A DNA stretch of 64,000 bases from Anaerolineae bacterium (GTDB lineage: Bacteria > Chloroflexota > Anaerolineae > Anaerolineales > Anaerolineaceae): positions 62,001-126,000 of the forward strand of contig JABLWW010000009.1 of NCBI GenBank assembly GCA_013178295.1. Direction: 5' to 3'. Below the pieces are notes generated by a model. It saw only the letters and a list, made by a program, of their open reading frames with translations, had not been told where the DNA came from and did not search any database. Each line of letters opens with the position of its first letter. Position 1 is the first letter of the stretch. Positions 23,399-38,354 of the stretch are shown here, piece after piece. The translations under genes were made by a program, and so were the position numbers.

Positions 23399-23457
23399 TA
23401 GAATAATTTAGGAAAGGATAATAGATATCCTGATTGAAAGGATGTTCCTTAGCTCCT

Positions 23458-24189
23458 ATGGCGAAAAAAGAATCCCCCCAGAATGTGATTCAGTCATATC
23501 AGCGCAAACAACAAATTATGCCGTTTGTGATAGGAAGTTTGGCGGTTCTGTTTGTGGTGATTGGCATCATTCTTCTTGTGGTCTGGTTTGTTGGGGAAGA
23601 TAGCCCTATCTCTTCGTGGTTTCCGACTGAGACACCGACCTCTACCCTCACTTTTACCGCGACGCCCGAGACCCCCACCTCCACCCCCACAGAAACCCCT
23701 ACAGAAACGCCGTCGCCTACGGTTACTGAGACGCCTACCCCCTCTGGTCCGTTTCTTTATACTGTCAAGGAAGGGGATACCTGCTGGGATATCGCGGTGA
23801 ACTTTAAAGTAGAGCTTCCTGTTTTACTGGCAATCAACAATTTCGTGGGATGCCCTATCAAACCTGGAGATACCATTCGCATTCCTGCGCCTGATACGCA
23901 GCTTCCAACAGATACCCCAATCCCCACTGGGTTGCCGCGGGGCACCAAGCTGGAATATGTTGTGCGGAGTGGAGACACGATTGCCAGCATTGCTTCCAAG
24001 TTTAATGCAAAGGTTGACACGATCCTCAAAGATAACAAGATTACGGATGCCAATAAGATCGAAGTTGGGCAGAAGTTGATTATCCGGGTGAATGAGGTTA
24101 CCCCTACTAATACCCTTGCTCCAACTTCTACGGCGCCAGTTGGAGAAAACGCAACGCCGCTGCCGCCTCCTGCAGGTTCGGTTTCGTAG
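23458..24189 (+). CDS. Membrane-anchored protein with two LysM domains
   Basis: Envelope protein of 243 residues. A short basic cytoplasmic tail is followed by one transmembrane helix (about 24-45, VIGSLAVLFVVIGIILLVVW), then a Thr/Pro linker (about 55-95) with repeated TPTET-like units. Two LysM modules follow: FLYTVKEGDTCWDIAVNF (about 100-145) and LEYVVRSGDTIASIASKF (about 160-210). The tail is Thr/Pro-rich. LysM domains bind N-acetylglucosamine glycans such as peptidoglycan. No enzymatic domain is attached, so it is a wall-binding anchor or scaffold. The ATG at 23458 is preferred; a TTG at 23434 is possible. It neighbours the surface-protein gene string on the opposite strand. Confidence 0.87.
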   Translation: MAKKESPQNVIQSYQRKQQIMPFVIGSLAVLFVVIGIILLVVWFVGEDSPISSWFPTETPTSTLTFTATPETPTSTPTETPTETPSPTVTETPTPSGPFLYTVKEGDTCWDIAVNFKVELPVLLAINNFVGCPIKPGDTIRIPAPDTQLPTDTPIPTGLPRGTKLEYVVRSGDTIASIASKFNAKVDTILKDNKITDANKIEVGQKLIIRVNEVTPTNTLAPTSTAPVGENATPLPPPAGSVS

Positions 24190-24239: not shown

Positions 24240-25391
24240 TTATTGGCTGTTGAGGGCGTTGATAATCTCTGCGCGCACATAGGGTTCTGGCTCAGTTCTT
24301 AGACGGTTGAGAAGTATCTGTTTTGTTTTTTTGAGGTGATAATTGCCCAGCGCCCAGGCAGCATGTCCCCTGATGATGGCATCTGGCTCATCGGAAAGGA
24401 GCTTGGAAAGCGGGGAAATACATGCGGGATGGCGCAAATTGCCAGCGACAACTGCCAGATTGCGGATGTAGCCTTTACGGCGCGTTCGTGATATGGGTGT
24501 TTTTCCGTATTTTTGTTTGAATTCCTGATCTGTTAGCCCAAGTTCTGAGAAAACCTGAGGAAAAAACAAATCCTCTTTTGGTTGTATCAAGACAGGTGTT
24601 TGTAGACGATCAACGCGTTTATTCCATGGGCATACCATCTGGCAAATATCACAGCCGAAGACCCAGTTGCTCATGGCAGGGCGTATTTCTACAGGTATCA
24701 CTCTTCTATGTTCTATTGTCAGGTAGGAGATGCAGCGACGGGCGTCAATAAAACGCTCGGGGCGAATACACTGTGTGGGACATGCTGAAATACATCTCTG
24801 GCAGTTGCCGCATCTGTCATCTAGAAATGGCGGGCTAGGCTCCATTTCCAGGTTGAGAAAGCAAACAGATAGAAAAATATATGAGCCGTATAGCGGGGAA
24901 ATCAGACAGGTATTTTTCCCTACCCAGCCTAAGCCTGCCTGGGATGCAAAATCCTTTTCCATCACAGGGCCTGTGTCGGTGTAATGAAGGGCTTCGATGG
25001 ATTTTGTGACACCTGCGATTTTTTGAATAGTTTGTACCAGTATTTCAACACGGGGCGGGATGACATGATGATAGTCCTGCGAACATGCATACGCCGAGAT
25101 GCGCCCCAGTCCTTTTTGTTGTTCGGTAGGCAGATCGTGGGGTTTTGTATAACGCGTTGCCAATACGATCACAGATTGTGCGGAGGGTAGGATAAGCCGC
25201 GGGTCTTTGCGCATAGATATAGCGCGTTGATTAGAGAGATATTGCATCTCTGCGTGGTATCCGCCAGTGATCCATTGTTGATAGAATTCTGTGTGCGGAG
25301 TGGGCTGGGGTAAGGCAATGCCAAAGACATCAAAGCCGAGGTTGAGCGCCTCGGCTTTGATGTCTTCTATTTGCGAACGGAGGAGGGGCAT
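24240..25391 (-). CDS. queG: Epoxyqueuosine reductase
   Basis: Iron-sulfur, cobalamin-dependent enzyme of 383 residues that makes the last step to queuosine in tRNA wobble positions. The N-terminal DUF1730 region is followed by two 4Fe-4S motifs (CGNCQRCISACPTQCI and CDICQMVCPWN) and C-terminal HEAT-like repeats (DEPDAIIRGHAAWALGNY). The length fits the family. It is the last gene of the long minus-strand surface-protein string, only 4 bp after the preceding stop codon, although its role is unrelated. Codons about 9-22 contain an 18-bp perfect inverted repeat at DNA level (25324-25366). No other queuosine gene is in the window. Confidence 0.95.
   Translation of the reverse strand: MPLLRSQIEDIKAEALNLGFDVFGIALPQPTPHTEFYQQWITGGYHAEMQYLSNQRAISMRKDPRLILPSAQSVIVLATRYTKPHDLPTEQQKGLGRISAYACSQDYHHVIPPRVEILVQTIQKIAGVTKSIEALHYTDTGPVMEKDFASQAGLGWVGKNTCLISPLYGSYIFLSVCFLNLEMEPSPPFLDDRCGNCQRCISACPTQCIRPERFIDARRCISYLTIEHRRVIPVEIRPAMSNWVFGCDICQMVCPWNKRVDRLQTPVLIQPKEDLFFPQVFSELGLTDQEFKQKYGKTPISRTRRKGYIRNLAVVAGNLRHPACISPLSKLLSDEPDAIIRGHAAWALGNYHLKKTKQILLNRLRTEPEPYVRAEIINALNSQ
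25324..25366. repeat. 18-bp perfect inverted repeat inside the queG 5' coding region
   Basis: Arms 25324-25341 and 25349-25366 with a 7-nt loop (ttgagcg on plus). It lies 25-68 nt inside the queG coding sequence and encodes residues EDIKAEALNLGFDVFG. A stem this long near a start codon could slow ribosomes or stabilise the mRNA. Confidence 0.9.
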
Positions 25392-25395
25392 TACG

Positions 25396-26076
25396 TTATT
25401 CGGTCACCTTAACTGAAAAATAAAAGTTGTAGAAGCAAACCCCGTCGTCATTGTACAGACAATACTTCGCCACGTGGATCCCCGGTGTCCTTGGAGCCTC
25501 GAAAAAGGCGATGAAGTCATATTCTGCGCCCCTGGGAACCGCTGCCCGTAGGTGGATGCTGGTATCGGCTGTGGTCATGGTGCCACCCATCCAACGAAAA
25601 TAGAACTTTGTGTTCCAGTCACGCGCGCCGGTATTTTTGAATACCCATTTGATGTTCAAATCTTGCCCCGGTGTAACAACAATACCATCTGCAATGGATT
25701 GGCTGAGCAGCACGGCGGAGTCGGTATAGTAAGTTTTTGTGATGGTGGGTTGAACAACCCATCCTCCACCTGAGCCTGATGGAGCAGAGGTGGGTAACGA
25801 TGTTGCTGTGGATATTGTATATAGGGTTGGCGTTTCCACTGGCGGCGGGGGTGGTGGAGGAGGCAGAGGCGAGGACGTTACTGTTGGCAGAAGGGCTGCC
25901 TCCTGCGTAATTTGGGCAACAACAGTCTGTGCAGCTTGTGTGCGTACCAGATTGATGTCTTCCGTTGGCATCGCAGCGACGGTTGGCTGCGGGGCTACGC
26001 TGACAGTCTTGCACGATGTGAGCCAAAGGGTCAGCAAGATCAAGAAGTTTGTCAATAGGATATGTTTTTGCTTCAT
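25396..26076 (-). CDS. Lipoprotein with C-terminal NBR1-like Ig domain
   Basis: Surface lipoprotein of 226 residues. The signal peptide ends LWLTSC (lipid Cys about 22). A short motif EDINLVRTQAAQTVVAQIT follows, then a Pro-rich linker. The C-terminal about 110 residues match the NBR1-type Ig-like fold: VTPGQDLNIKWVFKNTGARDW, then HLRAAVPRGAEYDFIAFFEAP and TPGIHVAKYCLYNDDG. This fold is common in Chloroflexota exported proteins; it is thought to mediate binding, with no known enzymatic role. AAAGGA precedes the ATG by 7 nt. It has two paralogues further upstream in the same string (32268-33233 and 33284-34051). It lies 36 bp after the giant repeat protein. Confidence 0.85.
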   Translation of the reverse strand: MKQKHILLTNFLILLTLWLTSCKTVSVAPQPTVAAMPTEDINLVRTQAAQTVVAQITQEAALLPTVTSSPLPPPPPPPPVETPTLYTISTATSLPTSAPSGSGGGWVVQPTITKTYYTDSAVLLSQSIADGIVVTPGQDLNIKWVFKNTGARDWNTKFYFRWMGGTMTTADTSIHLRAAVPRGAEYDFIAFFEAPRTPGIHVAKYCLYNDDGVCFYNFYFSVKVTE

Positions 26077-26112
26077 TACGTTATCCTTTCAGGGCAGTAT
26101 TTCCCAGGGTGC

Positions 26113-29100
26113 TTACTGTATAGTGAAGGTTGCCGTATTGCTGGTAGGGCCGAGGACTTTGGGTGCCCATGGTGTAACTTTCCATGTATGATTTCCTCTA
26201 GGGAGGTCAACTGTGGAAGTAACGCTACAGGTTGTTCCCGCACAAATGCTTGAAGCCTTATACCAAGCATAGATTTCTCTCCCGTTTGGCCCATCGACCC
26301 TAAGCAGATATTCTGTGGCTGAAGACACCTCATTCCACTTGAAAGTAGGTTTTTGGGTAGTTATTGCACCAATTGGGGAAATAAGCACTGGGGCGGTCAA
26401 TGGCGCCTGTACAATGAAAGAGCCTGTCGAACTCCATGCGCCTTCTGTGGCATCATAGCCGACCTTTACTTTCCATGTCAGATTTCCGGATGGTAGCGTG
26501 ATAGATGGCGTGACAGAACAGGTTGTGCTTCCACAATTTGCTTGGGTGGTCGTGTACCACGTGCTGATAACGTTGCCAGAGGAGCTGTCTATATTGAGCA
26601 AATAGCGTGTGGCATTTTCCACCTTGTTCCAGGTAAACGCGGGTTGTTGTGAGGTGACTGTATTGTTGATGGGTGAGACCAACGTGGTTGCACCAGCCGG
26701 GTTGACTTGAGAAGGCACTACAAATTGCGCCGATGAACTCCAATTGTATCCGCCCGAGTTCCAAGTTTGGACCCTCCAGGAATATGTTCCTGGAGACAGT
26801 ATTGTTGAGGGCTTGACAGAGCAGTTTTGCGTGCCACAGTTGGCGTCAGCAGCGGTGTACCAGTACTGGTAGGTGGTTGTAGAGCCTGTTACCTCAACAA
26901 GATACCATGATGCGTCTGAGACTTTTGTCCAGGTGAAGCTTGGCTGTGCCGGTGCATTCTCGCCACCAATGGGCGAAACTAGGTGAACGGAATCTGGCAG
27001 GGTGGATACACTAAACGCGCCGGTGTCGCTGACGGGACCATCTCCTGAGGAATTAGAACTTGTAACTGTCCAGGTATAATTCCCAGTGTTCAATCCCGAA
27101 GCGGCTTTGACAGAGCATGTGCTTGTGCTGCATACCTGGTTTGAGTCGTACCAGGTATTGATGACCGTACCGCTGCTGCCATTTACCTTGAGCAGGTACA
27201 TGGTCGCTGAACTGGACCTTTCCCATGTAAAGGTGGGTGTGGCGGTGGTGGTAGCGCTGTTGATGGGTGAAATCAGCTTGACTTTGGCGGGCGCTGTTAC
27301 GACTGTGAATGCAGCACTGGAAGTTCCTCCGTAACCGCTGCTCGATGTTGTACTGGACGTCCAGGTCTGAATATGCCAGGTGTGGTTGCCAGCTTCCAAA
27401 GGAGTGGAGGTCAAAGCGGTATGAGCGACGAAACATGTATCGGTGCCGCAACTGGCTTCTGCGGCTGACATCCAGCGACCAAATAGTGTGACGCTGGAGG
27501 CATCCTGCACGCGGATATAATACCAGTCGGCAAGGTCAACCGGCTTCCAGATGTATACGGGCTGGGTTGTGGAAATCGTACCGCTGGGAGAAACCAGGGT
27601 GGCAGCTCCTGGCAAGCCTGGTATTTTGAATGTCCACACAAGTGAGTCGGTAAATCCAGCTGCGTTGTATGTGCGGACGCTCCAGTTGTAGTTCCCTTTT
27701 CCCAAGCCGGAGATGGATACTGAACAGGTTGAGCCAACAGCCGTACAGCCTGCTTCAGAGGGTGTTTTCCAGGATTGTTTCTTTATGTTGCCAAACGAAT
27801 CTTTTATTTCTAGAAAGTACCACAGAGCATCATTGACATAACCCCACTGGAAGGTTACTGGCGAGGCAACGTTTGTGGCCCCATCTAGCGGTTGGACTAG
27901 CGTAGCTGCGCCGGGCCCTACACCGACTGTGAAAGTGTCGGCGGCGCTTCCATTGCCCGCGGCATTAGTGGCTTCGATTTCCCAAGTATATGGTCCAGCA
28001 GCTAGCGGGGAGGATGATGAGAAGGGAGCAACGTAGCAAGTAGAAGTGTCGCAATTTGCCTCTGCTGGGGTATATTCTCTGGTGGTTACGCCACCGCCGG
28101 TCACAGTCAGTGTGTATTTTGTGGCGTAGGGGACAACTCTCCAACGGAAGGTGGGTGTGCCGGAAGTGGTTGTTCCAAGCGGGGAAAGCAACACTGGGGC
28201 GGGTGGTAAAACCAGGGCAAATTGTTTTGGGGCGCTCCATGTTCCGTTGCCGCCTATAGAGTTTGCTGCCTGCACCTTCCAGGTGTAATTTCCTGATATT
28301 GTAAGGGCTGGGGCAAGCGGGTATACACAGGTATCTCCTGGGGCTGAACAGTCCACCCATTGGGTAAGGGTGGTAAACCCACTTGGGCCCTCCAGCATCA
28401 GCTGGTAGTTGGTAATGCCAGGTACTTCATACCATGTGAATGAGGGGGTTGGGTTTGTGATTTCGATTGACGATGCGCCAGCGGCAGGGGGGTCTATGAG
28501 AACTGGCGCACCCGGATTGGCTGGGATGACAAAGTACTCTGTGTCGCTCCAGGGTCCTGACCCAAAAGCGTTCCATGTCATCACCTTCCAGGAATGTGTG
28601 CCGGGGCTTAGAGCAATGGTAAGATCAATGGTAAATGTGGGTGGTGCAACCGATCCGTCGAAGACCAGGTTATCCGGGCTGAGCCACAGGTTGACCTCGA
28701 TGCCGTTGGGCCCGTCGATCTGTAACAAGTAAAAGCTGGCATCGGCTACCCATTCCCAAGTCAGCGTAGGTGTGTTATCACTTGTCGCGTGGGCAATTGG
28801 TGAAACAAGATTTGTAGCGGCTGGTGTGGATGCAACGGTGAATGCACCAGCGACGCTGGGGGGGCCCGCTGCGCCACCATTTAACCCTTCAACTGTCCAG
28901 GTGTAATTGCCGCTGGTTAGTGAGGTTGGGGGTGTTACCGAACAGTTTGTGGCGCAATTTGACTGGGCGGTGGTGTAAGTGAGGCTATATACATTCTCAC
29001 CAGAGGCTTTGTTGACCGTAAGCCGGTAAGAGGTAGCCAGTGCCACCTTTTGCCACACAAAAGTGGGTTTGTTGGTAGTGGTTGCGCCCAAAATGGGTTG

Positions 29101-30837
29101 AACCAGTGTTGGCGCTGCTGGAAGGGAAGATACGGTGAACTGGAATTGCTCACTCCATGGCCCCAGACCGGAGGTGTTCCATGTCATGACTTTCCACGTG
29201 TGGACGCCCCCTTCCAGCGTTATGCCGGGTGTAATACGGCATGCGTTGGTATAGCCGGGAACGGCAGCACAGCTGGCAGCGCTGTACCAGTTATTGATGA
29301 CTGGAAGACCGTTTGGCCCGATGACCTGTAGGAGATAATACAAGGTGTCAGTAACCTGATAAAAGTCAAAGGACGGGGTTTCATTTGAGAAGCCGTTCTG
29401 CGGCGGGCTGATCAATGTGGCAGTAGCGGGATTGGCAGAAACCATAAACGTACGTTCGCCAACTGGCTGTCCGGACCATAACCCCGCCTTACCGTTGTTC
29501 CACGTCTGGATATCCCAGGTGTACTGTCCGCCAGCCAGAGGAGTTGTCAGAGTAATTGAACAGTTGTCTGTTCCACAGTTTGCTTCTGAAGTCGTATAGA
29601 ATTTGTTGAAGACGTTGCCGGACGAACCGTCGATGCTCAACAGATAGGCAGAAGCAAGCGCCAATTTTTTCCAGGTAAAGGTTGGCGTCGAGGTGGTGTA
29701 TACTACATCGGGTGGGGTGCTGAGGGGGGAAACCAGCGTAGTAGCTGCCAATGGAACAGCATCCACCTGCACGTTAAACTGATTGGTAGTGCTCCACTCG
29801 CCTTCTCCGCTGGCATTTTTGGCTTTTACTTTCCAGGTATGCTGTCCGCCTTCAAATGAAACAGCTGTAGCATCATACGTGCAAGTGCTATTTGGCGCTG
29901 TGCAGGTCAGGTCTGCGCTTGAAAACCAGTTGTTGATCACATAACCTGAGGGACCCATTACCTCCAGGAGATATGAAGTTGCACTTGCCACGGAATTCCA
30001 GGTAAATCTAATGTTGTTATAAACCCACTCTGATCCATTGACAGGTTGTTGAAGCACCGGGATTCCCGGCGGTGCAGTTACAACAAAACTTCTATCTGCA
30101 GGAACTGTTGCCCAGCTGCCAGGCACGTCTTCATTCCAGGTCTGAACGTTCCAGGTGTATAAGCCTGCAGCCAGTGTTAAGGTAGGTGCAATGTTACATA
30201 CAGCAACAGATGGATCCGAGCAACCACATTGGGTAGCAGTATAAGATTGATTCAGGATGGCGTTGCCGTCTTCGTTGACAATACTGAGCAGGTACCTGGA
30301 GGCAAAATCAACCCTTTCCCAGGTGAACGCCGGGCTGGAATTTGTGCTTTGCCCGTTAATTGGCGATAACAGTTCTGTTGCCGCAGGCGGTACAATTGTC
30401 TCAAAAGGTATCGTCGTTGACCAGGAACCAGCCACCGAGCTATATGTTTGTACACGAACCTTGTGCTTTCCACCTGGCAGGAGAGAAAGGTCAATGCTTA
30501 ATGAACAATTCCCATTGCCCGCTAAGCTATAACCTGGATTGGCAGGGTCTTCGCACAATGCCTGTGTTGCGGTGATCAACTGCTGAAATTGCATGAAGTC
30601 GGTCGCTGCGTCGTCAATACGCACCAGGTAAGATGATGCCGCTGCGATACCGTCCCAGCGAAAGGTGTGCGGGGATAGGGGCAGTTTCTGGTTGTATGTT
30701 GGGGAACGAACAGTTGTAGCCGCCGGGGCGGTTTGCGCCTCAGCGGTCTGGATGCTTGTGGCTGTAGTTCCCAGCAACAAGACAAAGATCAACAGAAAGC
30801 TGAAAAGCCTGTAGATTATCATTTTCTTAGGAAACAT
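26113..30837 (-). CDS. Giant secreted protein of 15 cysteine-paired beta-sandwich-like repeats
   Basis: Exported protein of about 1574 residues. It has a signal peptide (YRLFSFLLIFVLLLGTTATS) followed by 15 repeats of about 95-110 residues that continue to the C-terminus. Each opens with a strand like LVSPINNTVTSQQPAFTW, then a Y-L-L-x-I/V segment, usually a G-P-S/N-G turn, a pair of cysteines 4-12 residues apart in most units (NCGTDNCS, VCSTSTCS), and ends G-x-Y/H-T-W-x-V-x-T-W-N. This looks like a fibronectin-III-type fold with a local disulfide. No anchor, sortase signal or catalytic domain is visible. I place the start at the ATG at 30837 (AGGAG upstream). A stalk, adhesin or glycan-binding surface fibre is likely; the exact role is unknown. 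Confidence 0.85.
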   Translation of the reverse strand: MFPKKMIIYRLFSFLLIFVLLLGTTATSIQTAEAQTAPAATTVRSPTYNQKLPLSPHTFRWDGIAAASSYLVRIDDAATDFMQFQQLITATQALCEDPANPGYSLAGNGNCSLSIDLSLLPGGKHKVRVQTYSSVAGSWSTTIPFETIVPPAATELLSPINGQSTNSSPAFTWERVDFASRYLLSIVNEDGNAILNQSYTATQCGCSDPSVAVCNIAPTLTLAAGLYTWNVQTWNEDVPGSWATVPADRSFVVTAPPGIPVLQQPVNGSEWVYNNIRFTWNSVASATSYLLEVMGPSGYVINNWFSSADLTCTAPNSTCTYDATAVSFEGGQHTWKVKAKNASGEGEWSTTNQFNVQVDAVPLAATTLVSPLSTPPDVVYTTSTPTFTWKKLALASAYLLSIDGSSGNVFNKFYTTSEANCGTDNCSITLTTPLAGGQYTWDIQTWNNGKAGLWSGQPVGERTFMVSANPATATLISPPQNGFSNETPSFDFYQVTDTLYYLLQVIGPNGLPVINNWYSAASCAAVPGYTNACRITPGITLEGGVHTWKVMTWNTSGLGPWSEQFQFTVSSLPAAPTLVQPILGATTTNKPTFVWQKVALATSYRLTVNKASGENVYSLTYTTAQSNCATNCSVTPPTSLTSGNYTWTVEGLNGGAAGPPSVAGAFTVASTPAATNLVSPIAHATSDNTPTLTWEWVADASFYLLQIDGPNGIEVNLWLSPDNLVFDGSVAPPTFTIDLTIALSPGTHSWKVMTWNAFGSGPWSDTEYFVIPANPGAPVLIDPPAAGASSIEITNPTPSFTWYEVPGITNYQLMLEGPSGFTTLTQWVDCSAPGDTCVYPLAPALTISGNYTWKVQAANSIGGNGTWSAPKQFALVLPPAPVLLSPLGTTTSGTPTFRWRVVPYATKYTLTVTGGGVTTREYTPAEANCDTSTCYVAPFSSSSPLAAGPYTWEIEATNAAGNGSAADTFTVGVGPGAATLVQPLDGATNVASPVTFQWGYVNDALWYFLEIKDSFGNIKKQSWKTPSEAGCTAVGSTCSVSISGLGKGNYNWSVRTYNAAGFTDSLVWTFKIPGLPGAATLVSPSGTISTTQPVYIWKPVDLADWYYIRVQDASSVTLFGRWMSAAEASCGTDTCFVAHTALTSTPLEAGNHTWHIQTWTSSTTSSSGYGGTSSAAFTVVTAPAKVKLISPINSATTTATPTFTWERSSSATMYLLKVNGSSGTVINTWYDSNQVCSTSTCSVKAASGLNTGNYTWTVTSSNSSGDGPVSDTGAFSVSTLPDSVHLVSPIGGENAPAQPSFTWTKVSDASWYLVEVTGSTTTYQYWYTAADANCGTQNCSVKPSTILSPGTYSWRVQTWNSGGYNWSSSAQFVVPSQVNPAGATTLVSPINNTVTSQQPAFTWNKVENATRYLLNIDSSSGNVISTWYTTTQANCGSTTCSVTPSITLPSGNLTWKVKVGYDATEGAWSSTGSFIVQAPLTAPVLISPIGAITTQKPTFKWNEVSSATEYLLRVDGPNGREIYAWYKASSICAGTTCSVTSTVDLPRGNHTWKVTPWAPKVLGPTSNTATFTIQ

Positions 30838-30873
30838 AACATCACACACTCCTGAATCACAGCCTAATTGTAT

Positions 30874-32250
30874 TTATCTGTAGGTGGCATCTATAGATTT
30901 CAAAATCGCAGCCAGGTCTATACCATTGACAAAGTCCACCATCCCTTTTTGGAAAGCCTGGTTTGTTTCTGGTGGTAGAAAGACCGATGCCGGGTAGCGC
31001 ACAATCTGTGCATTGATAACCAAATCAGCCAGTGCCCTCTCAGTTTCAGAAGGGTAGGCGTTTTTGTCTAAATCTTTGTGCGGGAATAACCCCCCGCCCA
31101 GTTTCGCCCATTCAGCACCAGCATTGCCAGTAGCGAGAAATTCCATAAGCTTGCGCACTTCGGCTCTATCGTTGAGCATCACAAACATCTCGCCGCTGAC
31201 CAGAAGAGGGGTGTCTGTCCCTTGCATGGTGGTGGGCAAAACAAAGAACCCTGCCTGGTTTTCCATTTCGGCTTTTACCGTTGCGGGCAGTTGATGGTAT
31301 AAAGCGCTCGTCTGGCGGCTTAACCAACAGGAGGGCGGATTTGAGAAAATCATTGCTAGAGCGTTAGGGGCTGAGGTACTCAGCATATCAGATGTCCCGC
31401 CGTATACCATTTGTGGATCAAGCCAGATTTTGCCCAAATTATCAAATGCAGTTTGCACCTCATTGCTTTGGAATGACAATTGATGGGCTGTCCATTGGTC
31501 GTATTGCTTAATGCCAACGGTGTGTAGGAAGACATCTTCCAGCCACTCTGTAGCAGGAGTGCTTCCGTAATAGCTGTCTGTTACCAGCCCAATACACCAG
31601 GGAGAGATGCCTTGGGCCGCCATCTGGGCAGTCATGGTTTCCAGTTCCTGCCATGTGGAAGGGGCGGAATAACCAGCGCTTGAAAATGCAGTTTTGGAGT
31701 ACCAAACCAGACTATGGGCGTTTACACGATATGGGACGGCATAGACACGACCTTCAAGAGAGGCCATTTGTTTCCAAGCAGGAGAGTAGTTGGCGTCTAT
31801 TTGTTTTTCGATTTGTGCCCACAGTGGCTTGATGGCGCCGATTGTGGCCAAGTCTTTCAAGATAGCCGGGTCCGGCAACATGCTAATATCTGGAGTGTCT
31901 CCAGCATCGATACGCAGCTTGAGCAGGTCTGAAAAATTAGAGGCGCTTGAATAAACAACGTCAATCCCTGTGGCGTCTTCAAAAGGTTTTAGGGCGATAT
32001 TGAAACGCATCTCATCTTCGCCCGTGAGCGTGCCGAAGATCGTGATGACACCAGTATCCGTTGCAGTTGGGATCACCACAGGGGTGGCGACTTGTGGCGT
32101 GGGTCTGGAAGTACTGGCTGGCAATTGCGTTTGCTCAGAAGGAGGTGGCAATTCTGGCGTTTTGGTGTTCTCCTTGCTTTTGCAGCTGCCTAATATAAGG
32201 GCAAGACAACAGACGACGCAAAGCGACAGCGTTAAGACCTTTGTTTTCAT
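30874..32250 (-). CDS. Extracellular solute-binding lipoprotein (family 1, sugar type), orphan
   Basis: Binding protein of 458 residues. The signal peptide ends in lipobox LILGSC (Cys23), with a Pro/Thr-rich tether before the domain starts at about 65 (GVITIFGTLTGEDEMRF). The fold matches carbohydrate-type SBP family 1: PFEDATGIDVVYSSAS, DAGDTPDISMLPDPAIL, AVPYRVNAHSLVWYSKTAF, and an expected ligand-site region LAMIFSNPPSCWL. Members usually serve an ABC importer for sugars or oligosaccharides. No permease or ATPase genes are nearby; it sits between the giant repeat protein (24 bp) and an NBR1-Ig lipoprotein (17 bp). It could pair with a distant permease or act as a surface sugar sensor. Confidence 0.88.
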   Translation of the reverse strand: MKTKVLTLSLCVVCCLALILGSCKSKENTKTPELPPPSEQTQLPASTSRPTPQVATPVVIPTATDTGVITIFGTLTGEDEMRFNIALKPFEDATGIDVVYSSASNFSDLLKLRIDAGDTPDISMLPDPAILKDLATIGAIKPLWAQIEKQIDANYSPAWKQMASLEGRVYAVPYRVNAHSLVWYSKTAFSSAGYSAPSTWQELETMTAQMAAQGISPWCIGLVTDSYYGSTPATEWLEDVFLHTVGIKQYDQWTAHQLSFQSNEVQTAFDNLGKIWLDPQMVYGGTSDMLSTSAPNALAMIFSNPPSCWLSRQTSALYHQLPATVKAEMENQAGFFVLPTTMQGTDTPLLVSGEMFVMLNDRAEVRKLMEFLATGNAGAEWAKLGGGLFPHKDLDKNAYPSETERALADLVINAQIVRYPASVFLPPETNQAFQKGMVDFVNGIDLAAILKSIDATYR

Positions 32251-32267
32251 GAAGTCAGCAACTCCGT

Positions 32268-33233
32268 TCAGGACGCAGGGCAGACATACGTCCCCGAGAA
32301 ACCGCCATCGGCGCCACAGGTATTTACGGAACAGAAAGTAATCGTATCAGCCTTTACCTGCAAGGCTCGTGCGGCTAAGAATTCTCGGCATGTATTTTGC
32401 TCTGATGAGCCTGGAGCGTAGGTATTGGGATCCTGAACACAGCACAGCTGAATTTTATTGAGGGTTTCTTTGGTGGCAGTCTGCGCCCATGCGGTGGCCG
32501 TCCGTTCCTGGTCGCCGATATCCTGGAACACGTTGATGGTGACATTAAGTTCGTAGAAAGGTTGAGCCTGATCATTTTTCAGCACCCACACACTTTTGAA
32601 AGTGCCTGTGGTGCCACTGGTTTCCATATCAACAATCACCTGGTAGGTTTCGTTTGGCAATACATCATTGCGGAAGTAGTAGATGCGCGGAAAGCTTGAT
32701 GGCCCAATACGGTTGCTGGTAGAGGTATCCCAGAACTCGACGTAGTAGCCAGTAGTCCATTTGTTCGTACCGATATTGCGAATTTCCCATATTGTGTCAA
32801 AGCCATGATATGTGGGAAGGGAGGTGCCATCGGCGGGCGTTTGTCCGACGAACTCCACCTTATCCGCTTTGGAGGTTGCTGGAGCAGCTGGCGTATTGGT
32901 TTTCAGAACAGGCAAGGTGCCGATAACCGGTGTGCCAGGAATGGCAGCGGGTAAAGTGGCACCTCCCAGCGGTTGAGGTGAAGCCAGAGGAGTGTTGGTT
33001 TGCATTTGCGCCATGACAGTTTGCGCTGCCTCAGTGCGAATGAGGTTGGGATCCTCTGATGGTTGGGCTGCCGCCTGTGTCAATTGGGCTTCGACAGTTT
33101 GTGCTGCAGAGGTGAATATAAGATTGGGATCCACCGTAGGGGATGTGCCGGGGCGTTCGCAGGCACTGACTCCAAGAAGAAACATGGTGACAACAATGAG
33201 CCACCGTCTATGTGTCTTAGACAAACAATTCAT
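32268..33233 (-). CDS. NBR1-Ig-like lipoprotein with two copies of the AAQT motif and a Cys-rich tail
   Basis: Lipoprotein of 321 residues. The start is the ATG at 33233, since GGAGG lies just before it and the signal peptide (RRWLIVVTMFLLGVSAC, lipid Cys) begins there; a longer frame would run into the gene upstream. Two tandem motifs follow (DPNLIFTSAAQTVEAQLT and DPNLIRTEAAQTVMAQM), then a Pro-rich linker and one NBR1-type Ig domain (about 120-235: PTYHGFDTIWEIRNIGTNKW). A C-terminal region of about 80 residues has five or more cysteines (QLCCVQDPNT, NTCREFLAA, CSVNTCGADGG) and is unlike its paralogues. Likely a surface-binding protein; the Cys-rich tail suggests a disulfide-stabilised module. 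Confidence 0.8.
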   Translation of the reverse strand: MNCLSKTHRRWLIVVTMFLLGVSACERPGTSPTVDPNLIFTSAAQTVEAQLTQAAAQPSEDPNLIRTEAAQTVMAQMQTNTPLASPQPLGGATLPAAIPGTPVIGTLPVLKTNTPAAPATSKADKVEFVGQTPADGTSLPTYHGFDTIWEIRNIGTNKWTTGYYVEFWDTSTSNRIGPSSFPRIYYFRNDVLPNETYQVIVDMETSGTTGTFKSVWVLKNDQAQPFYELNVTINVFQDIGDQERTATAWAQTATKETLNKIQLCCVQDPNTYAPGSSEQNTCREFLAARALQVKADTITFCSVNTCGADGGFSGTYVCPAS

Positions 33234-33283
33234 CGTTTTCCTCCATAAGCCGTGAGGCGTATTTTTATAAGTAGATTTTAGAT

Positions 33284-34051
33284 TCAAGGAGATTGAATGA
33301 TTACCTCTAGTGTGAAGAAGCAGAAGGAAATTCCCTCGGCATTCTGCAAAGCCCACATGCTGGTGTACTTTCCGGGTGTAATGCCTGTTTTCATATCGGC
33401 AATGGCACGATATGTCTCTCCGGGGGCTACGGTGTTGGTGAGGAAATATTGTGTGGGCAATCCAGCTCCAATTCGATCGCTTCCCTGCACATTATACCAA
33501 ACTAGACGGTAGAGTTTATTCCAGGTTGTGCTGCCCGAGTTCTGTAATGACCAACTGGCATCGAACGAAAAGTTGGTGGAATAGATTAATCCGTCGGGGG
33601 GATCCTGGCTTACGTAGGTGCATTTATCGGCAGTCTGGGTGCTGCCAGAAGGGGTATTTGCTAGAGTTGGTATGATGGGTGTTGTTTGTGTGTTTTGCGG
33701 CGGCAGAGTGGTGTCCTGAGGGATTGGAGGAGGCGGGGGGACAGTAGCCCCTCCGAGCGGAGCAGCTTGATTTGCCTCGGCAGATGCAGTAAGCAGGGGC
33801 GGGGGCGGGGGAATTGAATCTAAAGGAGAAGAAGATGGTGTTTGGACTTGCTCCTCTTGAGATGGGGCTGGAGCCTCAGCACTAAGTTGCACGACGATGG
33901 TCTGCGCGGCTGCAGTATAAAAGACATTGACATCCTGCGTGGGTTGTGCTTCTGATGATCCACAGGCACTTAAGGTAATGGCTATGATGAAAAAGATAAT
34001 CTGCAGAACCTTCCGCCAGTCAGGCTCTTTTACAACGTGCAAAACAAACAT
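33284..34051 (-). CDS. NBR1-Ig-like lipoprotein (third paralogue)
   Basis: Lipoprotein of 255 residues. The signal peptide is VLQIIFFIIAITLSAC with the lipid Cys at about 30. One AAQT-type motif follows (DVNVFYTAAAQTIVVQLS), then a long Pro-rich linker with runs such as IPPPPPLL and VPPPPPIP. The C-terminal NBR1-type Ig domain has the expected W-N-G pattern (NFSFDASWSLQNSGSTTWN) and a closing TPGKYTSMWALQN. The ribosome site (TAGGAGA) is rather far from the ATG, so the start is less sure; an in-frame TTG three codons on is possible. It lies between the M23 peptidase (68 bp) and the previous lipoprotein (50 bp). Confidence 0.8.
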   Translation of the reverse strand: MFVLHVVKEPDWRKVLQIIFFIIAITLSACGSSEAQPTQDVNVFYTAAAQTIVVQLSAEAPAPSQEEQVQTPSSSPLDSIPPPPPLLTASAEANQAAPLGGATVPPPPPIPQDTTLPPQNTQTTPIIPTLANTPSGSTQTADKCTYVSQDPPDGLIYSTNFSFDASWSLQNSGSTTWNKLYRLVWYNVQGSDRIGAGLPTQYFLTNTVAPGETYRAIADMKTGITPGKYTSMWALQNAEGISFCFFTLEVIIQSP

Positions 34052-34119
34052 GGTTTTCAGGTATAGTCTCCTAAAGATGTTTAATTGTCAATTGGTTTGT
34101 GTAAAATGTCAAGGGAGGA

Positions 34120-35232
34120 TTAAGGGTTCAAAAACGCATCGGGTGATGGTGTTGGTGGGGGAGAGTTATTAAAGCCTTTTTCTCCGGTGAAGGTAAAATA
34201 AGTAATCGCGCCAGGGTTTATGCGGATTTCATTTGTGTATATATCATCAAAATACTCAATGAAGAGGTAATAGTCTCCTGCTGGCAGGTCACCAAGTACG
34301 AGATTCTCTTGGTAATAGTCGTCGCTATGAATAACAGACTGCCCACCATAGCTGATCACGTACCACTCATCCCCGCTTTGCTTTGATCGAACATCAACCC
34401 GTTGACCACCGAGGAAAGAGCCGTTGGTATTTTGCAAAAGCCCTACCAGGACTCCCCAGCCTTGCGGTGGCACAATCCATAATTCGGGGTTGCGCGAGGT
34501 AAAGAAAGAGTTGTTTGCAATTCGGACTTCAAAATGAAGGTGTGGGCCTGTGGTTTTCCCGGTGTTTCCCACAATACCAATAGGGTCTCCTGTGTTGACT
34601 CTTTGCCCCACAACCGCATCCACCCGATCCATGTGCCCGTAGATGGTATATAAACGTCTTCCTTTGTAGCCAAAGTCGTGTCGAATGGTAACCGCTAAAC
34701 CGTATGGGTCATTGGGATCATTTCCCCCAGAAAACACACCGTATCCGGCAGAAATCACCTCACCTGGACCTGCGGCAATCACAGGCGTTCCTCTTTTAGC
34801 GACAATGTCGATTCCGGAATGAACTACGTTTTCCCAAAACACTCCACCATAGCGATAGTTTGCCAATGGCCAGTTGATTTCATCCGCTGCGATGGGGCGC
34901 TTGAAGTAGAAGTGGTCATAAGGGCCAAGAGCAAAGGGCGCTTCATACAAAGGAGGACGCCAGAGTGAAACAGGGGCTTGTGCTGGTTCAGGAAAGGTAA
35001 ACTCAAGAATTTCTTCAGTTTGGGAAAGGTTTTGTGTTGGGCTGGGCTTAAGCCTTTCGTCTGTTGGAAAAAGCGCAGGCTGTGGAGTTTCGGTTCTTGT
35101 TATTTGGTCTGCGGAGCTCTCGGCAGTGGAAAAGCTTGGGATGCCCGTTGCAACGGTTGTTGAGGTACATCCAGCGGAACAGAATGCCAAAAACCAGAGG
35201 CATAAGACTGTAGCAGTAATTCTGAGGTTCAT
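34120..35232 (-). CDS. M23 family metallopeptidase lipoprotein
   Basis: Cell-wall endopeptidase candidate of 370 residues. I place the start at 35232, where a signal peptide with lipobox FCSAGC begins; an earlier in-frame start would overlap the upstream propeller gene by about 270 bp. A Thr/Pro linker leads to the M23 (LytM) domain with the complete zinc site: HSGIDIVAKRGTPV, YTIYGHMDRV, and HLHFE in TGPHLHFEVRIA. A C-terminal beta domain of about 115 residues follows (PQGWGVLVGLLQNTNGSF). Family members cut peptidoglycan cross-links, and the site looks active. Position 23 bp after the beta-propeller gene implies co-expression. Confidence 0.88.
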   Translation of the reverse strand: MNLRITATVLCLWFLAFCSAGCTSTTVATGIPSFSTAESSADQITRTETPQPALFPTDERLKPSPTQNLSQTEEILEFTFPEPAQAPVSLWRPPLYEAPFALGPYDHFYFKRPIAADEINWPLANYRYGGVFWENVVHSGIDIVAKRGTPVIAAGPGEVISAGYGVFSGGNDPNDPYGLAVTIRHDFGYKGRRLYTIYGHMDRVDAVVGQRVNTGDPIGIVGNTGKTTGPHLHFEVRIANNSFFTSRNPELWIVPPQGWGVLVGLLQNTNGSFLGGQRVDVRSKQSGDEWYVISYGGQSVIHSDDYYQENLVLGDLPAGDYYLFIEYFDDIYTNEIRINPGAITYFTFTGEKGFNNSPPPTPSPDAFLNP

Positions 35233-35254
35233 AAGAATGACAATGATTGCTCTA

Positions 35255-37147
35255 TTAGGGCTTTGCTGTCCATGTTGGGCGGGGTGTGCTCGTGGCAGAC
35301 GGTAAAGGGGTGGGCGTAGAGCTTTCGAACACGAAATCTTTGGGCGTTTGGGTGGGAGTTCGGGTTCGAGTAGGCACGTAAGTGGCTGTCCACAATAGTT
35401 CTGGAGGATAAAGTTCAGACATTGCCTGATCCCAGGTGAGGTTGTCACTGATGACAAATTGGTTAAAGCGTGCTGCGGGGTAATAAGCGCGCCACTCAGA
35501 TAACGCCGGTAGCCTTTCCCAGCCATATTTGCGGGCTAAAGCGGTGAAGTCAATATAGTAACCCGACGGTGCGGGCAGAGGACGCCCGCCGTTTTCATAA
35601 AAGTCTGGGTTTCCACTGTATCGGGCGCTCATGTCCCACACACTTTGTTTGATTGGTTTACCCTGTGATCCGTCCTGGTATCTGGTTTTGATGTACAGCC
35701 GCCAGTATACCTGAGCGTTGATGTCTTCTCGGGCGAGGTACATCCAGCCTGCTTGCAGTGGGATTGTATTGATTTCAATTGCACGCCCGGTAAAAAGCCA
35801 GTTTTTCTGCATGTTGGGCGCAGGAGGCTCGGTAAGGGGAAGATAGGCGTTTTCAAGGTTTTCTAGAAAATTCCAGCCAAGCAATATTTCTGTCTCTGCT
35901 TTGAGGCTGGCAAAGGCTTCATCTACCGCATCATGCAGGAAAGGGTAAGGGGCTCTTATATTATTTAACTTGGAGACGCTAAATCTTCCTACGGACGATA
36001 CAGGATTCACAGAGAGGATTGGCTGCCATAAAGGAGCGGCTTGTGTATTGGCGTCTTTGTCAAAAGGGTAGTCTGCCATAAGATTGCCTATTTCCCCTGA
36101 TTTCCAGTCTATGCCATTTACGTTGCCTGGCAGTCGGGTGGGGGGGAGATAGATCGAACCATCGCTAACCAAATAACCAGCCAACAGGGTCTGATTTGGA
36201 TCAGGTATCTGCGCAAGAAGGATATCGCCCATGGGGCTCCAAACAGGCTTCTCCCCGCTTCCAACCTGGCGCGGTGGGTGGTTTGGGTTTTGAGAATCCC
36301 AAATTAGCAGACTGGTTTCCCAGGTGTTTTGAGCAGACCATGCTAGAAAACGTCCGTCAGGTGACCACACTGGATGCGTATCGCTGTGTGTTGCATCCCG
36401 ACTGATGTTAATCAAACGATCTTCTGTTTTATCCAGATCAGCCAGCCATATTTCCTCTTCGCCTGTTCTATTTGAACAAAAGGCAATTTGCCTGCCTTGT
36501 GGCGACCACACCGGAGTGATATCCTGTCCGGGGTGGTCGGTCAGACGCACAGGGGGCTGATTTATGTCTTCAGCAGAGCGGATAAATATTTCAAGGTTGT
36601 TATCAATATAAGTTTCGTGTGCAATAAATTTTCCATCAGGAGACCAGCTTAACTGACCCTCGTACTCCGGGCTGTCGGTTACCCTCTTCCACGTATTGCG
36701 CTTGATATCCAGGATGTAAATATCCCAGTATCCATTGCGTTTCGAACTCATTGCGATAGCGCTTCCATCGGGTTTTATGGCCGGGTATTCGTCATCCCAT
36801 TCACCTTTTGTGATGCGTGAAAGAGGTTTGTATAACGGGTGGAATGCAAAGATGTGTGAAAACATTCCATCCTGCATGGAGAGAATGACAAGACCTTGAT
36901 GCTGTAGCCCTTGTTGTGCGGATAGGCTAAATGTTGGGGACGCGGCAGAAGTCCTAAGCGGGCTTACTGGAGGTGCTTCTCCAGAGCCTGTGGTTTGCAG
37001 CGCGATGCTGGGGGTTTGGGAAAGGGTGTGTGTAGGGGGTGAGACTGGTTGTTGGCGAAATGGCAAAAGAAAGTATAGAGCAGTAATGGCACCAGCGATA
37101 AGCAACACAGCCAGTAGAACCCATACAACGCGGCGTTTTGATAACAT
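35255..37147 (-). CDS. Membrane-anchored PD40/TolB-like beta-propeller protein
   Basis: Exported protein of 630 residues and first gene of the long minus-strand string. One N-terminal helix (VVWVLLAVLLIAGAITAL) acts as an anchor, with a Ser/Thr/Pro linker. Residues about 95-345 contain five or more PD40 blades, with repeats like LSWSPDGKFIAHET, PVWSPQGRQIAFCSN and PVWSPDGRFLAWSA. The region about 380-600 is a separate domain with many aromatics (AGWMYLAREDINAQVYWRLY, PSGYYIDFTALARKYGWERLP) that I do not recognise. The tail is Thr/Pro-rich. Propellers of this kind are interaction platforms. A promoter lies so close that the transcript is probably leaderless. Confidence 0.85.
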   Translation of the reverse strand: MLSKRRVVWVLLAVLLIAGAITALYFLLPFRQQPVSPPTHTLSQTPSIALQTTGSGEAPPVSPLRTSAASPTFSLSAQQGLQHQGLVILSMQDGMFSHIFAFHPLYKPLSRITKGEWDDEYPAIKPDGSAIAMSSKRNGYWDIYILDIKRNTWKRVTDSPEYEGQLSWSPDGKFIAHETYIDNNLEIFIRSAEDINQPPVRLTDHPGQDITPVWSPQGRQIAFCSNRTGEEEIWLADLDKTEDRLINISRDATHSDTHPVWSPDGRFLAWSAQNTWETSLLIWDSQNPNHPPRQVGSGEKPVWSPMGDILLAQIPDPNQTLLAGYLVSDGSIYLPPTRLPGNVNGIDWKSGEIGNLMADYPFDKDANTQAAPLWQPILSVNPVSSVGRFSVSKLNNIRAPYPFLHDAVDEAFASLKAETEILLGWNFLENLENAYLPLTEPPAPNMQKNWLFTGRAIEINTIPLQAGWMYLAREDINAQVYWRLYIKTRYQDGSQGKPIKQSVWDMSARYSGNPDFYENGGRPLPAPSGYYIDFTALARKYGWERLPALSEWRAYYPAARFNQFVISDNLTWDQAMSELYPPELLWTATYVPTRTRTPTQTPKDFVFESSTPTPLPSATSTPRPTWTAKP

Positions 37148-37205: not shown

Positions 37206-37241
37206 TTCGGCTGTATTTCAATTGTGCCAGGTGGTTGTTTT

Positions 37242-38354
37242 ATGTCGATTTTTGCCCGTGTGACCAAGTGGGGATTGCTCAACAAGGAAGCAAACGGCAA
37301 GCGCGGGATGGCCTTGCCGTTTATTTTCATGGTCGCTGTGACAAAAATTGTGGGGCTGGTGGCAACTTTTTTGCTTATTGTTGTGTCAATTATGATGCAG
37401 TTTGATTACTTGACGATCGCTACCGGTTTTCGGTTTCCCGTAGTGCATTTTGATCATTTTCAAAAGTTTGGGTTGAACCTTGAGAGCTTTGGAGTGGCTT
37501 CAAGACCGGCGTTTGAGGCAAGCCTTACGCCTTTTCTATCTGCATCTGCCGGGCAGAGTAGTCTACCTATACAGGTAACTTCAACCCCTTCTTTTCGACT
37601 CAGCCCAACAGCAATCGCTACACAAAAGCTTTCTGACACAGCTACAATAGCGCCTTCCTCAACGCTGACTGCGACGCTAACCCTGTCGCCAACTTTGACA
37701 TTGACTCCCAGTATCACCAGTACACCTACAATCACTCCAACCGCGACTGTAACACCGTATGTGCTTGCGTATGAGGGGAAACTGCACTCACCTTTGGCAG
37801 ATATCAGTTTTCCGGAATTGTCTTCGATTGTTTCACAGCCATATATACGGATTTATGAAGCACGTGATACCGGTCATTATGGGGTGGATTTGGGTTCTTA
37901 CGACTATAAGGGGAAAATGATTTATGATTGGCCGGTCATGGCTGTGTTCGCGGGCAGAGTGGTTTCTGTGGTTAATGACAGATTGCCGTTAGGGAATATG
38001 TTGATCATCGAGACAACGTATGATGATCTTCCCCAGGAAGCGCGCAGTTTGCTGGGTATTCAGTATGGTGAGTCGCTTTATCATCTATATGGGCACTTGA
38101 TCCAGCCGCCAGCGCTTAAGATTGGAGAGAGGGTATTGTGTGGTCAGAGGATTGGCGCAGTGGGAAAGAGCAAGACGGTTGAGGCACATTTGCATCTTGA
38201 AATGCGGATAGGGACACCCAATGTGGTATTTGATGGTATGGCTTATTATGAGACCAATGCCACAGATCAGGAACGAAACAACTATGAACGCTTCAGAATG
38301 AGCGGCGAATTTCGATCTTTTGACCCAATGATCATTTTTGCCCAAATACAGTAA
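37242..38354 (+). CDS. Membrane-anchored M23 family metallopeptidase
   Basis: Second M23 enzyme of the region, 370 residues. The start at 37242 follows AGGTGG; a GTG 18 bp upstream overlaps that site. One membrane helix (about 30-55) is followed by a long Thr/Pro/Ser linker (about 100-170) and the LytM domain. The zinc site is complete: HYGVDLGSYD, HLYGHLIQP and HLHLEMRIG. Insertions relative to short M23 proteins (about residues 200-230) may shape the cleft. It is membrane-tethered by a helix, whereas the divergent M23 protein is a lipoprotein. It runs with two more plus-strand genes in a presumed surface operon. Confidence 0.88.
   Translation: MSIFARVTKWGLLNKEANGKRGMALPFIFMVAVTKIVGLVATFLLIVVSIMMQFDYLTIATGFRFPVVHFDHFQKFGLNLESFGVASRPAFEASLTPFLSASAGQSSLPIQVTSTPSFRLSPTAIATQKLSDTATIAPSSTLTATLTLSPTLTLTPSITSTPTITPTATVTPYVLAYEGKLHSPLADISFPELSSIVSQPYIRIYEARDTGHYGVDLGSYDYKGKMIYDWPVMAVFAGRVVSVVNDRLPLGNMLIIETTYDDLPQEARSLLGIQYGESLYHLYGHLIQPPALKIGERVLCGQRIGAVGKSKTVEAHLHLEMRIGTPNVVFDGMAYYETNATDQERNNYERFRMSGEFRSFDPMIIFAQIQ

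What the first reader, a model, noticed from the sequence alone, without database searches (positions are those of the whole stretch)
24240..37147. Eight-gene surface-protein string: a candidate undescribed envelope system
From 37147 leftward the genes follow with gaps of 4-68 bp: PD40 propeller, M23 lipoprotein, two NBR1-Ig lipoproteins, an orphan sugar-type binding lipoprotein, a giant 15-repeat secreted protein, a third NBR1-Ig lipoprotein, then QueG. Seven of eight products are exported. A wall-cutting enzyme, a long fibre-like protein, a scaffold and three similar binders suggest assembly of a surface structure or capture of a polymer.
Basis: partly seen in the sequence, partly recalled or inferred. 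Interest (0 to 1): 0.68.

Follow-up and report, generated by a model that had tools for sequence, protein, structure and literature searches.

The report
Conserved wall-enzyme gene pair with insertions
A row of eight genes in a bacterium of a filamentous group holds a widely kept, apparently undescribed pairing of a cell-wall-cutting enzyme with a propeller protein, followed by small binding lipoproteins, while the eye-catching giant protein beside them was seen at this spot in none of the relatives examined.

Summary
The eight-gene string is real. All eight genes, the 4-68 bp gaps, three NBR1-Ig lipoproteins and the 15 repeats of the giant were confirmed. It is not one conserved eight-gene system.

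The kept core is: a TolB-like propeller protein with a membrane helix and a strongly conserved ~210-aa C-terminal domain without a credible Pfam match ("PD40C"); an M23 wall-peptidase lipoprotein with intact motifs; and one or more NBR1-Ig lipoproteins. In the window's own family QueG usually follows.

PD40C is followed by this M23 in 68 of 69 named loci with room to see it. In 61 genomes (the window's and 60 relatives) all 46 with PD40C also hold this M23.

The giant and the sugar-type binding lipoprotein occur at this locus in 0 of 52 named loci with 6 kb of room. They lie between the two NBR1-Ig lineages, a place where two relatives carry other inserts in or near it. The binding lipoprotein looks like a stray paralogue of a sugar-transporter subunit.

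Best reading: an Anaerolineales wall-remodelling unit, an M23 endopeptidase with a dedicated propeller partner and NBR1-Ig accessory lipoproteins. The linkage is shown; the joint action is inferred.

The parts
35255..37147 (-). PD40C protein, 630 aa: N-terminal helix 4-31 (membrane anchor by sequence), six-bladed TolB-like propeller (about 85-353), conserved C-terminal domain (about 388-597), Thr/Pro-rich tail
35357..35986 (-). the ~210-aa C-terminal domain without credible Pfam match; 17 invariant and 20 nearly invariant columns in 23 sequences
34120..35232 (-). M23 (LytM-type) peptidase lipoprotein, 370 aa; catalytic domain about 136-256, conserved N-terminal segment (invariant residues from W91), C-terminal beta-sandwich about 257-355
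33284..34051 (-). NBR1-Ig (FW) lipoprotein A, first-position lineage
32268..33233 (-). NBR1-Ig (FW) lipoprotein B, first-position lineage; Cys-containing C-terminal tail
30874..32250 (-). orphan sugar-type solute-binding lipoprotein; not at this locus in relatives examined
26113..30849 (-). giant secreted protein, 1578 aa, 15 Ig/Fn3-like repeats, no membrane or sortase anchor seen by eye at its C-terminus; not at this locus in relatives examined
25396..26076 (-). NBR1-Ig (FW) lipoprotein C, the lineage found just before QueG in relatives with two or more copies
24240..25391 (-). QueG, tRNA epoxyqueuosine reductase with HEAT repeats; usual last gene of the string in the window's family (16 of 20 fetched loci), no envelope role implied
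37224..38354 (+). second M23 protein upstream, divergent here; a homologue lies within four ORFs upstream of PD40C in 13 of the 20 same-family loci fetched

Best explanation
The string is a conserved Anaerolineales cell-wall unit that holds two extra, lineage-specific genes. SHOWN: the core is PD40C, M23 and NBR1-Ig lipoprotein(s), usually with QueG following in the window's family; the binding lipoprotein and the giant sit between the two NBR1-Ig lineages and are absent there in the relatives examined. INFERRED: the M23 lipoprotein is anchored outside the membrane and cuts peptide cross-links in peptidoglycan. PD40C, held by its N-terminal helix with propeller and C-terminal domain outside, is its dedicated partner: it places the enzyme, switches it on, or feeds it substrate. 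Likely contact points are the invariant N-terminal segment of the M23 protein and the conserved C-terminal domain of PD40C. The NBR1-Ig lipoproteins are accessory binders at the same place. The giant and the binding lipoprotein are later additions that may use the operon for expression.
For: Linkage. In the named collection PD40C is followed on the same strand by the M23 in 68 of 69 loci with at least 1.3 kb of room (80 loci held, 11 lack room), and in 32 of the 33 loci that have 6 kb of room but no QueG, so the pair outlasts the general gene order. In 61 genomes all 46 with PD40C hold an M23 orthologue at 320 bits or more. By the listed coordinates the two are adjacent on one contig in 42 of these 46; in the other four (G009, G021, G038, G059) they lie on different contigs. 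M23: H138, D142 and H231 invariant, H233 at 90% or more in 38 sequences, lipobox Cys in 37 of 38; model close to lysostaphin/LytM, Z about 17, rmsd 2.3-2.9, 129-135 residues aligned. PD40C: helix 4-31 and confident propeller, nearest solved fold TolB, Z 31-32, rmsd 2.2-2.8, 265-280 aligned. C-terminal domain: 37 invariant or nearly invariant columns of 213. NBR1-Ig lies downstream in 43 of 52 loci with 6 kb of room and precedes QueG in 19 of 19. Its tree separates first-position from last-before-QueG lineages, with window LpA and LpB in the first and LpC in the second.
Against: No protein-protein contact or activity was tested. The M23 occurs without PD40C in at least two relatives whose upstream side is held (G041 at 478 bits; G005, a weaker 278-bit match followed by RecA). 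The PD40C domain occurs without this M23 within reach downstream in 6 of 7 genomes outside the order. One named locus (L145) has PD40C and no M23. Housekeeping genes (RecA, QueG) sit in the same neighbourhood, so adjacency alone does not prove shared function. The fold of the C-terminal domain was not identified. 15 of 61 genomes have no PD40C match, three of them possibly through contig breaks.
Confidence: 0.55

Rival explanations
1. One reading: the seven exported proteins build one surface structure or capture a polymer, with the giant as fibre and the lipoproteins as scaffold and binders.
For: Tight gaps and one strand. The giant is a chain of 15 Ig/Fn3-like repeats. Relatives of the binding lipoprotein lie with sugar-transporter permeases and a GH13 enzyme in three of four loci looked at, and one relative has a GH13 gene inserted between the lipoprotein and QueG of this very locus.
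Against: The giant and the binding lipoprotein are at the locus in 0 of 52 named loci and 0 of 32 fetched unnamed ones. No other gene of the string matches a permease family. Only partial, low-identity matches to the giant exist elsewhere.
Confidence: 0.12
2. Plain neighbourhood conservation: PD40C, M23, NBR1-Ig, RecA and QueG share a stable stretch of chromosome but do not act together.
For: QueG and RecA, with no known envelope role, are part of the neighbourhood. The M23 can exist without PD40C.
Against: Where QueG is not in the neighbourhood the PD40C-M23 pair stays (32 of 33). Presence matches: none of 61 genomes has PD40C without the M23.
Confidence: 0.28
3. PD40C is a Chloroflexota counterpart of TolB inside a Tol-Pal-like machine, and the lipoproteins stand in for Pal.
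For: The propeller is nearest to TolB among solved folds; the TolB NCBIfam profile matches the propeller at 113.9 bits.
Against: The TolB profile score is far below its cut-off of 343.15 bits and no TolB N-terminal domain appears in the Pfam scan at E 0.1. The extra domain is C-terminal. There is said to be no clear evidence for an outer membrane in Chloroflexota (PMC13319060, passages), so the classical role is doubtful.
Confidence: 0.05

Closest known systems
TolB (Tol-Pal system propeller)
   Same: Six-bladed PD40 propeller
   Different: No TolB N-terminal domain found; a C-terminal domain and a membrane helix instead; score under the TolB cut-off
M23/LytM wall endopeptidases and activators (lysostaphin, LytM, MepM, ShyA, DipM, EnvC)
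   Same: Catalytic fold and metal-site motifs
   Different: A lipoprotein with its own conserved N-terminal segment and a C-terminal beta-sandwich; the window copy is below every NCBIfam cut-off it matched; nearly always beside PD40C. That EnvC works with FtsEX and an amidase is recalled; solved EnvC-FtsX and EnvC-AmiB complexes are listed
NBR1 FW domain proteins
   Same: The PF16158 domain over its cut-off in all three lipoproteins; FW domains are known in some bacterial proteins (PMC9582228 and PMC9233695, passages)
   Different: Lipoproteins outside the cell by their signal sequences; low-scoring among the 14 copies in this genome
Sugar ABC transporter binding proteins (alpha-glucoside type, by gene context)
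   Same: SBP_bac_8 domain; the ten best relatives in other genomes are 34-38% identical over most of the length and lie beside LacI, permeases and a GH13 enzyme in three of four loci looked at
   Different: No permease in the string; inserted into a wall-enzyme gene row

Membership tests
TolB | Six-bladed PD40 propeller | tested here: met
   AlphaFold model; TolB Z 31-32, rmsd 2.2-2.8, 265-280 residues aligned
TolB | Whole-protein TolB profile over its curated cut-off | tested here: not met
   113.9 bits against a cut-off of 343.15
TolB | N-terminal TolB domain | tested here: not met
   No such match at E 0.1 in the Pfam scan; residues 31-72 are low confidence in the model
M23 / LytM peptidase | Peptidase_M23 domain with HxxxD and HxH motifs | tested here: met
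   PF01551 E 2e-25; H138, D142 and H231 invariant, H233 at 90% or more in 38 sequences
M23 / LytM peptidase | LytM/lysostaphin fold | tested here: met
   Z 17.1, rmsd 2.3, 130 residues aligned with lysostaphin
M23 / LytM peptidase | Cuts peptidoglycan | not testable with these tools
   needs an enzyme assay
NBR1-Ig (FW) domain | PF16158 over the gathering score | tested here: met
   47.9, 47.5 and 49.6 bits against 28
QueG | TIGR00276 equivalog over cut-off | tested here: met
   323.8 bits against 200
ABC sugar binding protein | SBP domain plus adjacent permease genes | tested here: not met
   SBP_bac_8 matched; none of the other seven genes of the string matches a permease family
M15 (VanY-type) peptidase fold for the PD40C C-terminal domain | Profile similarity to M15 | tested here: inconclusive
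   hhalign of the domain alignment against one VanY protein gave probability 0.1%; a weak template

The most novel reading that the evidence does not exclude
PD40C and M23 form a Chloroflexota-specific wall-hydrolase control complex: a TolB-like propeller with a new C-terminal domain steers an M23 endopeptidase in filamentous bacteria without a clear outer membrane, doing at their septa or sheath what EnvC/NlpD-type activators do elsewhere, with NBR1-type FW domains serving as outside-the-cell adaptors. The invariant N-terminal segment of the M23, partly low in confidence in the lone model, would be the part that folds onto PD40C.
Probability: 0.3. Interest if true: 0.62.

Novelty: new variant of a known kind. 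Interest (0 to 1): 0.42.

Why it matters
Anaerolineae include many filamentous bacteria of digesters and sediments (recalled) with an unusual envelope, and how they cut and shape their wall is, as far as I know, hardly studied. A nearly obligate pair of a wall peptidase and a propeller protein with an unnamed conserved domain gives a concrete, testable entry point. It also shows that the showiest gene of a string (the giant) can be the least conserved one.

Tried and rejected
Polymer-capture system with the giant as its core: rejected as a conserved system, because the giant and the binding lipoprotein are not at the locus in any relative examined. Recent foreign DNA by composition: not seen, G+C of the eight genes is 0.48-0.52. 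Internal promoters and terminators: counts are near the shuffled expectation (11 found, 12.8 expected; 17 found, 14.2 expected), so the transcript question stays open. Phage or defence origin: no PADLOC hit in the seven exported proteins; PHROGs hits only in the M23 protein. Known fold for the PD40C C-terminal domain: Pfam gave nothing for the window copy and only stray weak hits for others (best E 0.016); a profile search of solved-structure sequences gave only weak hits (best E 0.039); the structural comparisons were filled by propellers, so absence there shows nothing; a half-remembered likeness to M15 peptidases got no support.

Literature: no paper in the held open-access library combined 'next to BRCA1' with Chloroflexi, Anaerolineaceae with TolB and M23, the five terms, TolB-like with beta-propeller, M23 peptidase and peptidoglycan, or Chloroflexota with NBR1. 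One search counted 374 papers with four of five general terms; only its 10-row listing was seen and none was on this subject. Of three papers I saw passages only; the rest are listings. Subscription papers were not searched.

Limits of the counts. The 80 named loci are the best 80 of 236 found and overlap in genomes with the unnamed relatives, so the sets are not added together; some M23 profile training sequences come from the unnamed copies of the same genomes. The unnamed loci were chosen by match strength and contig length: 32 of the 46 PD40C-positive genomes were fetched. M23 was counted within 2.5 kb and over 60 bits, NBR1-Ig within 6 kb, QueG and the inserts within 9 kb, same strand only; a strongly diverged giant could be missed. 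My first NBR1-Ig profile contained wrongly oriented sequences; it was rebuilt before the counts. My simple ORF caller hid some genes behind antisense ORFs, so the final counts use profile hits on six-frame translations. The NBR1-Ig tree is one fast tree of a short domain; support values were not examined, and two single-copy loci (L101, L137) fall outside both lineages.
Full report
WHAT IS THERE. The window lies in a 3.95-Mb, 21-contig genome. The closest named loci include Ornatilinea, Bellilinea, Levilinea, Longilinea and Anaerolinea, so the family is Anaerolineaceae by inference. On the minus strand from 37147 to 24240 lie eight genes: PD40 protein, M23 lipoprotein, two NBR1-Ig lipoproteins, a solute-binding lipoprotein, a 1578-aa repeat protein, a third NBR1-Ig lipoprotein, and QueG. 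With internal starts at 35232 and 33233 the gaps are 22, 68, 50, 17, 24, 36 and 4 bp. The giant has 15 tandem Ig/Fn3-like units.

THE HIDDEN PART. The PD40 protein is more than a propeller. Residues 388-597 form a domain of nearly fixed length (193-213 aa in 32 relatives) with 17 invariant and 20 nearly invariant columns in 23 sequences. The window copy has no Pfam match even at E 10. The model is confident over the domain (most ten-residue blocks above 90, with dips near 440-450 and after 580), with a helix at 4-31 and a six-bladed propeller nearest to TolB among solved structures. In five of five scanned relatives from outside the order the domain also follows PD40 repeats.

GENE ORDER IN RELATIVES. 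The PD40 protein was searched in 61 genomes and 32 loci that hold the C-terminal domain were fetched. In 32 of 32 an M23 orthologue lies next downstream on the same strand. QueG lies downstream in 16 of the 20 same-family loci and in 0 of the 12 from other families. A scan of named genomes gave 236 relatives, of which the best 80 were kept. Of these 80, 69 have at least 1.3 kb of room, and 68 have the M23; the exception is L145, where other genes follow. With 6 kb of room there are 52: M23 in 51, NBR1-Ig in 43, QueG in 19, and the binding lipoprotein or giant in 0. In 19 of 19 loci with QueG the NBR1-Ig protein precedes it. In loci checked from outside the QueG-bearing group a RecA gene stands between M23 and the NBR1-Ig lipoprotein (L061, L048 and L206).

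GAIN AND LOSS. In the same 61 genomes the C-terminal domain is in 46 and the M23 orthologue (320 bits or more) in 50: all 46 plus G041, G042, G054 and G060. By coordinates 42 of the 46 have the two next to each other; in four they are on different contigs. In G042, G060 and G054 the M23 is near a contig start, so the upstream gene cannot be judged. In G041 the upstream side is held and no PD40C is there. G005 holds a weaker, 278-bit M23 before RecA without PD40C. So the M23 can live without PD40C, but in these 61 genomes PD40C was never seen without the M23. Outside the order this breaks: of seven genomes with the domain outside the order in a sample of 301 from the phylum, one has the M23 downstream.

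THE LIPOPROTEINS. The genome has 14 NBR1-Ig matches; the window's three are among the five weakest-scoring. A tree of the domain puts LpA and LpB with first-position lipoproteins of relatives and LpC with those just before QueG. The likely ancestral order in much of the family is therefore PD40C, M23, lipoprotein 1, lipoprotein 2, QueG. Lipoprotein 1 is doubled here, and the binding protein and giant lie between 1 and 2. At that same place G012 (whose contig has the length of the Ornatilinea apprima contig of L100) has a 769-aa protein, polytopic by eye and without a Pfam match over cut-off. An Anaerolinea sp. genome (L104) has a GH13 alpha-amylase-family gene between its lipoprotein and QueG.

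THE INSERTED GENES. The binding lipoprotein's ten best relatives in other genomes are 34-38% identical over most of the length, and one more is in its own genome at 35%. Four contexts were looked at. The own-genome one (L195) has LacI, two permeases, GH13 and GH1 by Pfam; in L196 one permease and the GH13 were checked by Pfam and the rest, like L197, is judged by eye; L198, cut by its contig end, shows no permease. For the giant, 17 of 60 relatives hold proteins with similar repeats, some far longer, but matches are partial, 27-49% identical and away from this locus; the four contexts inspected show no gene of this string by eye.

THE ENZYME. In 38 sequences H138, D142 and H231 are invariant and H233 is kept in 90% or more; the lipobox Cys is kept in 37 of 38. 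The model matches lysostaphin and LytM. Residues 84-135 carry 12 invariant positions, yet 84-96 are low in confidence in the lone model. That is what a partner-binding segment might look like; this is inference.

HOW IT LIKELY WORKS. See Best explanation. Shown: linkage, architecture, intact catalytic motifs, absence of the two extra genes from the locus in relatives. Inferred: joint action of PD40C and M23, and an accessory role of the NBR1-Ig lipoproteins. Litorilinea, another Chloroflexota, has peptidoglycan under extra layers, and there is said to be no clear evidence for an outer membrane in the phylum (PMC13319060, passages only).

NOVELTY. Searches of the held open-access library found no description. 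As a kind it is a wall hydrolase with a partner, so I rate it a new variant of a known kind.

Noticed in passing
37224-38354 (+): A second M23 protein, divergent from the string here; a homologue lies within four ORFs upstream of PD40C in 13 of 20 same-family loci fetched, on the same strand in 10 of the 13.
   Followed up: partly
L061, L048, L206 (between M23 and NBR1-Ig); L204: In several relatives a recA gene follows the M23, before an NBR1-Ig lipoprotein in L061, L048 and L206, so recA lives in this wall-gene neighbourhood.
   Followed up: partly
L209, L210, L211: Tandem pairs of a related M23 lineage (181-239 bits to the profile), one in a genome that has the main M23 and two in genomes that lack it.
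   Followed up: no
L178, L180-L185: The PD40C domain in other classes or families of the phylum without this M23 counted downstream; in L180 a 575-aa protein without Pfam match follows.
   Followed up: partly
25396-26076, 32268-33233, 33284-34051: The lipoproteins share a short N-terminal motif (around T-x-A-A-Q-T-V-x-A-Q) that in this genome matches clearly only in these three, with two more doubtful matches; it may serve oligomerisation.
   Followed up: partly
23434-24189 (+): A protein with two LysM domains beyond QueG, convergent with it; homologues lie near QueG and often beside UvrA in same-family loci.
   Followed up: no
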